Source of the DNA: a virus | Virus record (IMG/VR): IMGVR_UViG_3300021599_000343 | Span: 1-30,603 of that record | Direction: 5' to 3' (one strand) | DNA: 30,603 nucleotides | Part shown: positions 22,383 through 24,591 of the stretch, piece after piece | Layout of the letters: every line of letters begins with the position of its first letter | How positions within the stretch are numbered: position 1 is the stretch's first letter | The notes under the pieces: model-generated | Told to the model about the DNA's origin: nothing | Databases searched by the model: none | What the model saw: only the letters and a program-made list of their open reading frames with translations | Translations under genes and position numbers: made by a program

Positions 22383-22826
22383 ATGACGTGGTGTTATCAA
22401 AATCAAGTAGTAGAAGAAATCCCCGAAGGCTATATCGGATTTGTTTATCTTATTACCAATCTTAAAACCGGACAAAAGTACATAGGCAAGAAACTAGCAC
22501 AGTTTAAAAAAACTAAACCACCACTCAAAGGCAAAAAACTTAAAAGAAGAAGTATAGTAGAAAGCGATTGGCGCGAGTATTATGGCTCTTCAGATAGGTT
22601 AAACGCAGACATCCAAACATTAGGTCCGGAAAATTTCACAAGAGAAATACTTTATCTTTGCAAAAGCAAGGCAGAAATGTCATATCTAGAGGCAAGAGAG
22701 CAATTTGAACGTAGAGTTTTAGAATCTGACGACTACTATAACGGCATTATTAACGTAAGAGTAGGCGGTTCAAACATACTCAGGCAACGATTACTAGAAC
22801 AATCACAGGCAAAATCAAACGGTTAA
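22383..22826 (+). CDS. GIY-YIG-like endonuclease
   Basis: This 147-residue protein has a GIY-YIG-type core: VYLIT at residues 21-25 and KYIGKK at 32-37. It is followed by a basic loop (KGKKLKRRS), Arg64 in DWREYYGSS, and an acidic residue in SYLEAREQ (Glu103 or Glu106) where the family's metal-binding Glu is expected. The GIY triplet is changed to VYL, so it is a divergent member, similar to proteins often labelled Seg-like or homing endonucleases in marine T4-like phages. It starts 3 nt after the 82-aa gene and is the last gene before the RNA-like gap at 22827-23199. It could be a free-standing homing nuclease or a repair/degradation nuclease. The C-terminal part (YNGIINVRVGGSN) shows no clear DNA-binding module. 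Confidence 0.7.
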   Translation: MTWCYQNQVVEEIPEGYIGFVYLITNLKTGQKYIGKKLAQFKKTKPPLKGKKLKRRSIVESDWREYYGSSDRLNADIQTLGPENFTREILYLCKSKAEMSYLEAREQFERRVLESDDYYNGIINVRVGGSNILRQRLLEQSQAKSNG

Positions 22827-22835
22827 CGCTCAGCG

Positions 22836-22946
22836 CAGGCTAATTTCGTGCGCCCAAATCCCTGGTGATGTCTCGGGGTAAGGAAATCTCTCGCCGTTGT
22901 GAGTACTCAGTAACTATCCTTTACAGGACGATGATCAGATATGCCT
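22836..22946 (+). ncRNA. Putative structured RNA element, copy 1
   Basis: This is the first of two tandem copies in the 373-nt gene-free stretch. Conserved blocks are CAGGCTAA (22836-22843), CGCCGTTGTGA (22892-22902), ACTCAG (22905-22910) and TCAGATA (22935-22941). AGGC (22837-22840) can close on GCCT (22943-22946). Local stems are CCCTGG/TCGGGG with a 7-nt loop (22860-22878) and TCCT/AGGA with a TTAC loop (22917-22928). Some blocks resemble cobalamin riboswitch boxes: GGTGATGTC, CTCGCCGTTGTGA, CAGATA-TGCC. The match is partial (no GGGAA before GGTG), so I leave the class open. It has no start/SD pair with a plausible ORF and no tRNA T-arm. Confidence 0.45.
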
Positions 22947-22982
22947 ACATACAACTGATTTTACTGTTTGAGAATAATTTAA

Positions 22983-23137
22983 CAGGCTAAAAGAGGGAGA
23001 AAAACCCGCGGCTATACTTGTGTTAGCGTACATTTATAGACCCGCCGTTGTGATAAAGACTCAGCTCGTGGTACCGGACAACCGCCACTGTAATGCTGTA
23101 ACGCTAGTGTGACATGTTCAACTCAGATAATGTTTAA
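22983..23137 (+). ncRNA. Putative structured RNA element, copy 2
   Basis: The same blocks recur in the same order as copy 1: CAGGCTAA (22983-22990), CGCCGTTGTGA (23043-23053), ACTCAG (23059-23064) and TCAGATA (23123-23129). TTAACA (22979-22984) can pair with TGTTTAA (23131-23137) as a closing helix with one bulge. A strong arm runs 23008-23045: GCGG-CTAT with ATAG-AC-CCGC, capped by TGTGT-TAGC-GTACA. A second arm is GTGG/CCAC plus CGG-ACAA-CCG (23068-23088). It contains CCGCCACTGTAA, identical to a common cobalamin riboswitch core string, but in the arm rather than at the repeated block. Copy 2 is about 40 nt longer than copy 1. Confidence 0.45.
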
Positions 23138-23146
23138 CGAAAACGA

Positions 23147-23166
23147 TAGTGAGCTTCAGCTCACTA
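23147..23166. terminator. Perfect 8-bp hairpin, possible terminator or processing site
   Basis: TAGTGAGC, loop TTCA, GCTCACTA: eight perfect pairs. No T-run follows on the plus strand (ATAATAAATAAAG). On the minus strand TCGTTTTCG follows, so it might instead stop leftward read-through from the gp26 operon. It lies between the RNA element and the late promoter, so it would separate early from late transcripts. A terminator role is uncertain. Confidence 0.4.
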
Positions 23167-23168
23167 AT

Positions 23169-23176
23169 AATAAATA
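23169..23176 (+). promoter_or_regulatory. Late promoter match before the internal-protein gene
   Basis: AATAAATA fits NATAAATA. The start would be near 23182, giving an ~18-nt leader with AGGA at 23189-23192 and ATG at 23200. The position is well suited to the gene and lies just after the 8-bp hairpin. Confidence 0.55.
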
Positions 23177-23199
23177 AAGAAAGAAATCAGGAAATTCCT

Positions 23200-24591
23200 A
23201 TGAAAGTTTATGACATAATCTCAGAAGCAGTACCTTTAAATATTCCTACTCCTATACAATTTCCAGATGGTCGTTGGGGATTTAACATTGGCGGTAATCT
23301 GACAGGAGCATTTAGAAGCAAAAATGCAGCTATAGAATGGGCTAAAAATAATCCAGATAAGCTTCGTCCGGTTCCGGTAAATCCAGTGGATAGTACAAAA
23401 CCTAATCCTATGGATCAAATGAGAAGAGAACTTGAAAAGGGAGATGGGAAGTCTAGCACTGGCGGCCAAACAAGAAATACTCCTACTGGACAAACACACA
23501 CAGCTAGTCCAGATAATCCTAATCAACCAAAAAAAGCATCTGGGGGGAGTCTTCCCCCAGATGATGGGGTGCCTGGCGACAAAGGCGGAGAAAAAGCTGG
23601 TACCACAGACGGTAAACAACGTCGACAACCTACAAGACGACTTCGCGGAAGATATCTCTTCAGAAGAGGTCAAGGTATGGTCAACATTGACCGTAATGGA
23701 AAAGAACGAAAGGTTAGACCAATAGACGCAGTTGACGAAGTTGTTGAAGGCGGCAAAGCAAAAGTAAAAACAGCAACTGAAAACACAGTTTCCAAAGGTC
23801 TAAAAAAAGCTACAGTAAGACTAGCGTGGGTATTAGGTCTAGGACTAGCTGTTACTGAGTGGATAGACGATATGCATGCCGTACAAACTATGTTTGATGC
23901 TGGCCAACTTGGAGATGATCAAGAAAACGCTAGAGATACTGCACAAGATCTTCGAGCATATTATTCTACAATAGCATTTAATAAAGGACTAACAATGCTA
24001 GCAGCAATGGGCGGATTAGCTGCATTAGCTGCTCAACTACGTGCCTTTATACCTTTGTTTGCAGGAATTCCTGGATTTGGTTGGATGGCCGGCGGCGCAA
24101 TGTTTATAGCCACTATGGCCATCCCTTATATGTTGAGTCAAGAAGAAATACAAGCATGGTTACTTAAAAATGTCATGCAAGATCTATACGAAGATTATCC
24201 AGTAGGAGAACTTATTGGAAAATTAGGTGGTGCTACAACAGCTTTCTTCAGTGGCGCAACTGGCGGCGGACGAGATCCGGTTACTCGTTTCTTACCGGCG
24301 CCGATGGCTTTAAAAGAATTAAACAGTAAAATAAAAACTTCTGTAAAACTAGCTATTACTGACGGAAAAATAACTGATCCTTTAGAATTACAAAGACTAT
24401 CTACACAATTATATTCTCAAGGTCAAACTAGATCAAACTTTGGACGAACTGATGGTGCAGGAAAACCAGGACCTACTAAAGCAGCAGGCACCGGAGACGA
24501 TCCTGAGAATCCACTTAACAAGGGACCATCTGGCAGCAATTCTGGCTCAGTGAGTGCAGACGATTTGATAAAGCAATTATATTCAAAGTAA
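23200..24591 (+). CDS. Candidate internal head protein with capsid targeting sequence and membrane-like segments
   Basis: The start is taken at ATG 23200 (AGGA 7 nt upstream); an open GTG at 23149 lies inside the hairpin and is rejected. The product is 463 residues. The N-terminus MKVYDIISEA closely resembles the T4 capsid targeting sequence MKTYQEFIAEA of internal proteins, including an I-x-E/A site like those cut by the gp21 prohead protease, here after Glu9. After this come ~110 residues of Pro/Gly/Asn/Asp-rich linker, a basic patch (RRQPTRRLRGRYLFRR), and hydrophobic stretches near 206-222 and 263-312 (GLTMLAAMGGLAALAA; then LFAGIPGFGWMAGGAMFIA). This suggests a protein packed in the head and ejected with DNA, possibly into the membrane; that is inference. 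I do not recognise the rest. The 3' end overlaps the convergent 71-aa gene by 9 bp. Confidence 0.75.
   Translation: MKVYDIISEAVPLNIPTPIQFPDGRWGFNIGGNLTGAFRSKNAAIEWAKNNPDKLRPVPVNPVDSTKPNPMDQMRRELEKGDGKSSTGGQTRNTPTGQTHTASPDNPNQPKKASGGSLPPDDGVPGDKGGEKAGTTDGKQRRQPTRRLRGRYLFRRGQGMVNIDRNGKERKVRPIDAVDEVVEGGKAKVKTATENTVSKGLKKATVRLAWVLGLGLAVTEWIDDMHAVQTMFDAGQLGDDQENARDTAQDLRAYYSTIAFNKGLTMLAAMGGLAALAAQLRAFIPLFAGIPGFGWMAGGAMFIATMAIPYMLSQEEIQAWLLKNVMQDLYEDYPVGELIGKLGGATTAFFSGATGGGRDPVTRFLPAPMALKELNSKIKTSVKLAITDGKITDPLELQRLSTQLYSQGQTRSNFGRTDGAGKPGPTKAAGTGDDPENPLNKGPSGSNSGSVSADDLIKQLYSK

What the first reader, a model, noticed from the sequence alone, without database searches (positions are those of the whole stretch)
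22836..23137. Tandem pair of an undescribed RNA-like element in the gap after gp46
Seen: four blocks (CAGGCTAA, CGCCGTTGTGA, ACTCAG, TCAGATA) repeat in the same order about 147-188 nt apart, while the sequence between them differs but still forms stems (strong arm at 23008-23045; closing helices AGGC/GCCT in copy 1 and TTAACA/TGTTTAA in copy 2). Conserved blocks with variable stems are how structured RNAs look, not how coding DNA or simple repeats look. The pair sits between the early gene block and a late promoter. It might be a regulatory RNA, a tandem aptamer, or the remnant of a mobile RNA beside a GIY-YIG nuclease.
Basis: partly seen in the sequence, partly recalled or inferred. Interest (0 to 1): 0.75.

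Follow-up and report, generated by a model that had tools for sequence, protein, structure and literature searches.

The report
Phage RNA with matched twin boxes
The supposed tandem repeat is most of one roughly 500-nucleotide folded, apparently non-coding RNA of lake phages (its first third is the already catalogued but unexplained Polynucleobacter-1 RNA), and across hundreds of relatives it carries two short boxes that change together so as to stay identical to each other, which is unusual and unexplained.

Summary
The repeated blocks are real, but they are not a tandem pair. 'Copy 1' is Rfam RF01718, Polynucleobacter-1 (22828-22969, 86.9 bits). 'Copy 2' is a 3' extension of the same RNA that no Rfam family covers. 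In relatives the two shared blocks vary independently and sit in different helices.

The whole RNA is about 480-560 nt. It starts inside the end of a GIY-YIG gene and ends at a terminator-like hairpin. In 58 diverse copies, 82 proposed pairs are 94.7% paired, and 67 show compensatory change; pseudoknots lie 3' of the Rfam model. Synteny is fixed: gp55-gp47-gp46-GIY-YIG-RNA, then swappable virion-type genes. A second class, without a Rfam hit, occupies the same site in other phages. A third lies in Polynucleobacter-like chromosomes beside DUF6641 and a small tyrosine recombinase.

All three classes share a 3' module: ACUC-[7-nt box], hairpin, AUCU-[same box]. The boxes are identical in 290/295 phage loci (16 variants; about 16% expected by chance) and about 15/18 bacterial copies. 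The invariant flanks differ (CUC/UCU), which argues against gene conversion, and I found no complementary partner. This identity covariation is the surprising part. The window copy lacks the second box through an 85-nt deletion. The function is inferred, not shown.

The parts
22383..22826 (+). GIY-YIG endonuclease-like gene whose last codons form the 5' edge of the RNA
   Evidence: PHROG phrog_447 1.6e-40 (labelled 'NAD synthetase') and homing-endonuclease PHROGs; immediately upstream of the RNA in 170 of about 180 copies
22819..23166 (+). The structured RNA as present in this window: 5' domain, middle domain, first box and terminal hairpin; second box and the hairpins around it deleted
   Evidence: nhmmer match window 22799-23134 (263.7 bits) plus 23137-23232 (8.0 bits, weak); covariation
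22828..22969 (+).
   Evidence: cmscan 86.9 bits, gathering score 37, model 1-141
22819..22897 (+). Long-range helix: end of the GIY-YIG gene (22819-22824) with hairpin loop 22893-22897
   Evidence: all 5 pairs show change on both sides; about 76-83% of cells paired
22970..23120 (+).
   Evidence: helices 10-14: 94.5-100% paired, 26 of 32 pairs with compensatory change
23010..23042 (+). Hairpin arm
   Evidence: helix 10, 12 pairs, 11 with compensatory change
23023..23108 (+). Pseudoknot UUAGCG (23023-23028) x CGCUAGU (23102-23108)
   Evidence: helix 11, 6/6 pairs compensatory, 96.2% paired
23047..23082 (+).
   Evidence: helix 12, 99.3% paired, 3/5 pairs compensatory, the other 2 invariant
23061..23099 (+). 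Helix UCAGC x GCUGU, crossing the previous one
   Evidence: helix 13, 5/5 pairs compensatory, 95.5% paired
23121..23132 (+). Box R1: ACUC-[AGAUAAU]-G, 7-nt box at 23125-23131
   Evidence: identity-coupled to R2 in 126/127 non-redundant class 1 copies and 290/295 loci
23135..23136 (.). Junction of an 85-nt deletion that removes the inter-box hairpin, box R2 (AUCU-AGAUAAU) and part of the next hairpins, relative to L082, which is otherwise identical around it
23147..23166 (+). Terminal (terminator-like) hairpin UAGUGAGCUUCAGCUCACUA
   Evidence: inverted repeat I11; helix 17, 8/8 pairs compensatory
23200..24591 (+). Downstream gene, start MKVYDIISEAV, resembling a T4 capsid-targeting leader; an ATAAATA late-promoter-like motif precedes it
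   Evidence: similar N-termini in 129/200 loci; this gene family found in only 6 of 189 RNA loci

Best explanation
Identity (well supported): 22819 to about 23166 is one copy, with an 85-nt internal deletion, of a single ~480-560-nt RNA that appears to be non-coding. Its 5' third is Rfam Polynucleobacter-1. It is a fixed part of a lineage of T4-like freshwater phages, probably transcribed with the gp47/46-GIY-YIG genes and ended by a hairpin just before a late-promoter-like motif. Mechanism (inferred): the pseudoknotted body is a scaffold that holds two identical 7-nt boxes, one on each side of a hairpin, as twin single-stranded docking sites. They would engage two copies of the same partner, either other copies of the same RNA, as in the homo-oligomeric large phage RNAs GOLLD and ROOL, or a two-fold-symmetric protein. 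Co-change of the boxes would then keep the two contacts equivalent while their sequence drifts. Shown: the fold, the synteny and the identity coupling. Not shown: transcription, the partner, oligomerisation and the benefit to the phage.
For: RF01718 at 22828-22969. 82 pairs 94.7% paired against 33-43% when slid; 67 with compensatory change, including helices 3' of the Rfam model. Invariant G.U pairs (columns 180/212 and 362/374, 58/58) favour RNA of the + strand rather than folded DNA. One copy in each of 9 large phage contigs and fixed synteny. No conserved ORF. Box identity 126/127 non-redundant and 290/295 in all, against about 16% expected from pooled frequencies. Boxes also identical in class 2 phage RNAs and in about 15/18 chromosomal RNAs. 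The complement of the own box occurs in 0.4% of own RNAs against 2.8% for other boxes, so there is no internal partner. GOLLD and ROOL are large pseudoknotted phage RNAs that form RNA-only homo-oligomers (PMC12286853).
Against: No transcript data. No partner found; box counts in four phage genomes show no clear enrichment. The window copy has lost R2, so either that module is dispensable or this copy is defective. Oligomerisation rests on analogy alone. The one-copy-per-genome count comes from contigs of unknown completeness. The L447/L466 and L460 boxes are not identical.
Confidence: 0.6

Rival explanations
1. The 3' module is a cassette-exchange site: the boxes are the crossover (overlap) sequence, or an RNA guide for it, used to swap the gene that follows the RNA. 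Identity is needed because strands are exchanged between the sites, while the actual sequence is free.
For: 29 locus pairs share the upstream part and have unrelated downstream genes, against 1 the other way; in several the match ends inside or next to box R1 or shortly after R2. Downstream genes are interchangeable. In the bacterial copies examined the cargo starts right after the RNA and a small tyrosine recombinase follows. Seven nt is a typical tyrosine-recombinase overlap (general knowledge).
Against: No Phage_integrase match in 9 phage contigs that carry the RNA. No further box copies found near the bacterial cargo. Swapping also breaks at many other places in the 3' part, as expected of ordinary homologous recombination at a conserved sequence. 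The up/down asymmetry partly reflects that loci were fetched by GIY-YIG or RNA. The two sites are only about 50 nt apart.
Confidence: 0.2
2. The two boxes are twin binding sites of one phage- or element-encoded protein whose specificity drifts, so both sites follow it.
For: Equal sites are expected for a dimeric protein; the constant flanks could set the geometry.
Against: Related phages with the two boxes switched together and about 96% identity upstream (L039/L059), and cells with two RNAs bearing different boxes (G418: L464 and L466; G461: L459 and L465), leave little room for one specific partner. No candidate protein.
Confidence: 0.15
3. It is a 3'-UTR or terminator-like control element acting in cis on the gp46/GIY-YIG transcript or on the late gene downstream.
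For: It lies between an early-type gene block and a late-promoter-like motif; it overlaps the end of the GIY-YIG gene and ends in a terminator-like hairpin.
Against: Size and pseudoknots far exceed a terminator; it does not explain the twin boxes. The bacterial RNA has quite different neighbours.
Confidence: 0.1
4. One reading: two tandem copies of one element or aptamer.
For: Four short blocks repeat in order.
Against: Blocks vary independently in relatives and occupy different helices; only the first half matches RF01718 even at E<=10.
Confidence: 0.02

Closest known systems
Polynucleobacter-1 RNA (Rfam RF01718; Weinberg et al. 2010, PMC2864571)
   Same: The 5' 141 nt match it over the full model, 58-117 bits in 13 of 19 loci scanned
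   Different: Rfam models only the 5' domain. The middle and 3' domains, the twin boxes, the fixed phage synteny and the class 2 RNAs are outside it. The full text of the 2010 paper mentions the motif once, by name
GOLLD and ROOL large ornate RNAs (PMC12286853)
   Same: Large, pseudoknotted, phage- or prophage-encoded RNAs of unknown function; three of four RNA-bearing phage genomes checked encode 24-28 tRNAs
   Different: No Rfam match to GOLLD or ROOL; the RNA follows a GIY-YIG gene, and whether it lies near the tRNA genes was not examined; oligomerisation untested
Integron attC sites and IS110 bridge RNAs (general knowledge)
   Same: Structured element at the edge of swapped genes, with matched short sequences
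   Different: No integron integrase or IS110 recombinase found; invariant G.U pairs favour RNA; no target match demonstrated

Membership tests
Polynucleobacter-1 RNA (RF01718) | Score at or above the Rfam gathering score over the model | tested here: met
   86.9 bits vs 37, model 1-141
Polynucleobacter-1 RNA (RF01718) | Second half is a second member (tandem) | tested here: not met
   No RF01718 match at 22970-23250 up to E=10
GOLLD / ROOL | Match to the Rfam models | tested here: not met
   Only RF01718 found in the window and in 19 related loci
GOLLD / ROOL | Homo-oligomeric RNA cage | not testable with these tools
   Needs cryo-EM or mass photometry
tmRNA / tRNA | ARAGORN tmRNA or tRNA in the RNA | tested here: not met
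   None in L001, L004, L014, L021, L058, L071, L077, L081, L084
Protein-coding gene or translational bypass element | Conserved ORF or conserved codon-plus-stop boxes | tested here: not met
   No long ORF; bacterial boxes such as AGCGAAA and AACAAAA carry no stop codon
Tyrosine-recombinase cassette system | Recombinase encoded with the element | tested here: inconclusive
   Present in the 3 bacterial loci tested with Pfam and aligning in the other 3; absent from 9 phage contigs

The most novel reading that the evidence does not exclude
A family of large phage and bacterial RNAs whose two 7-nt boxes must be identical as such, with the sequence itself free to change: either a homo-paired contact between equivalent strands of RNA copies, or an RNA- or site-directed exchange of gene cassettes at its 3' end. 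Identity covariation of this kind would be a new signature in structured RNAs.
Probability: 0.25. Interest if true: 0.92.

Novelty: new variant of a known kind. Interest (0 to 1): 0.72.

Why it matters
A catalogued but unexplained 141-nt motif turns out to be the front end of a much larger RNA that is fixed in a common freshwater phage lineage and also sits in a bacterial mobile-looking element. The coupled twin boxes give a precise, testable handle on function (change one, both, or both in concert), and the class 2 RNA, with no Rfam match, is a new large RNA.

Tried and rejected
Tandem aptamer or repeat. Box as sense codon plus stop (translational bypass): all phage boxes read NNR-URA, but bacterial boxes do not. 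Internal partner for the boxes: the reverse complement is depleted. R1 box paired with the R2 flank AUCU: fits GG/AG boxes only, fails in GC/AC boxes (inspection). Trans partner by raw counts of the box in four phage genomes: nothing clear. Further copies of the box module in those four genomes: one unrelated partial match only. Isolate phages: no BLASTN match to four representatives. In GTDB genomes by DNA pattern: 48 matches, all but one (L420) chance by profile score. Melnitz phage has the closest GIY-YIG relative among isolates but no RNA match. Gene conversion as the cause of box identity: unlikely, because neighbouring positions (CUC/UCU) stay different.

Full report
Observation. The four blocks are present in the stated order and spacing, and the 23008-23045 arm is a real helix. 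The interpretation as two copies fails. The first half, 22828-22969, is Rfam RF01718 Polynucleobacter-1 at 86.9 bits; the second half has no Rfam match of note even at E<=10. In 80 loci fetched through the adjacent GIY-YIG gene, most of those with enough downstream sequence carry both halves in the same order, and the shared 11-mer diverges independently in the two halves.

Homologues. A pattern scan independent of the GIY-YIG gene gave further loci, mostly from freshwater-type metagenomes by my reading of the sample numbers, an inference. A profile of the whole region finds the RNA in nearly all loci, 127 non-redundant and full length. The RNA lies directly after the GIY-YIG gene in 170 of about 180 copies with a 5' end; six more have it about 0.8 kb upstream and the others lie near a contig edge or show no match. 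Of 129 copies with 2.5 kb of upstream sequence, 127 have a gp46 homologue; gp47, gp55 and the baseplate gene also keep their places. One RF01718 match was found in each of nine contigs of 160-355 kb. No isolate phage record matched by BLASTN.

Structure. In alignment A1 (58 diverse copies) I proposed helices from the same alignment and then counted pairs: 94.7% paired against 76% in shuffles and 33-43% when slid; 67 of 82 pairs with a two-sided change, 867 such cells against 247 in shuffles. Deriving helices from the same alignment inflates these figures, but the size of the gap, the pseudoknots UUAGCG x CGCUAA and GGAGC x GCUCU, and helix GUUGU x ACAAC outside Rfam's model make an RNA fold secure. 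Pairs that are always G.U point to RNA of the + strand. The 5' edge overlaps the last codons of the GIY-YIG gene (22819-22824 x 22893-22897). No conserved ORF exists.

Twin boxes. A covariation scan showed, beside ordinary pairs, columns that covary by identity: 319/371 (GG or AA), 320/372 (GG or CC), 323/375 (AA or GG), 325/377. They form two 7-nt boxes, ACUC-[box]-G and AUCU-[box]-R, on each side of a hairpin. They are identical in 126/127 non-redundant copies and 290/295 loci with 16 variants; independent draws would give about 16%. The flanks stay different, so copying of one box onto the other is not a simple explanation. The complement of the box is avoided in the RNA. In related phages both boxes switch together while the upstream 1.4 kb is about 96% identical (L039/L059).

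Class 2 and class 3. At the same site in other phages lies a different large RNA without a Rfam match. Its alignment folds with some compensatory pairs (17 of 61). It has the same 3' module with identical boxes (ACAUGAA, ACAUAAU, ACGUGAA and others), the GAGCG-N-AGCGA hairpin and a terminal hairpin. RF01718 also occurs in 6 of 398 Burkholderiaceae and 13 of 151 genomes of one genus, some with two copies. These RNAs too carry the module, with identical boxes in about 15 of 18 copies that can be judged. In the chromosomes examined the order is DUF6641, RNA, a variable cargo, then a 188-198 aa tyrosine recombinase.

Exchange of neighbours. 29 pairs of loci share the upstream part and differ completely downstream; the break lies in the RNA's 3' part. 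Pairs within one cluster are not independent. Downstream genes on the + strand often start with a leader such as MKVYDIISEA (129 of 200), which resembles the T4 capsid-targeting leader (general knowledge), so they may be packaged proteins. Ordinary recombination at a conserved boundary explains this without a special role for the RNA.

The window copy. L082 is identical to the window on both sides (through 23135 and from 23136) but has 85 nt more: the inter-box hairpin, R2 and part of the following hairpins. Either this phage lost the module or the contig is misassembled; I cannot tell without reads.

Conclusion. The identity of the element is secure; its mechanism is not. I favour a scaffold with two equivalent docking sites (about 0.35 for that mechanism taken alone; the 0.6 given covers identity plus mechanism), with cassette exchange (0.2), protein binding (0.15) and cis control (0.1) as rivals. 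The literature search covered open-access papers only, so a published description elsewhere cannot be excluded.

Noticed in passing
window 23135/23136 vs L082:2852-2936: 85-nt deletion in the window copy relative to an otherwise identical contig, at a short shared sequence (GTT); real variant or assembly artefact.
   Followed up: partly
window 23200-24591 and downstream genes of about 200 loci: Gene after the RNA is swapped between close relatives; many start with a T4-like capsid-targeting leader (M[KR]...[IL]xE), preceded by an ATAAATA motif.
   Followed up: partly
L071, L077, L078, L281-L344: Second, highly conserved large RNA (CACUAGGAACGA; GUCGACGUAGGUUGGGAAAGGUCAGAGCCC) at the same site, no Rfam match in the loci scanned.
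   Followed up: partly
L449-L454: Bacterial loci with DUF6641, RF01718 RNA, variable single-gene cargo and a small tyrosine recombinase; sporadic, sometimes two per genome.
   Followed up: partly
L345-L385 (G001, G006, G008): These phages encode 24-28 tRNA genes, while in G004 (160 kb fetched) none were found.
   Followed up: no
L058, L064 downstream of GIY-YIG: Further divergent RNA-like regions after the GIY-YIG gene that match only the 3' part of the profile.
   Followed up: no
window 22383-22826: GIY-YIG family phrog_447 is labelled 'NAD synthetase' in PHROGs and in many phage records; the label looks wrong.
   Followed up: no
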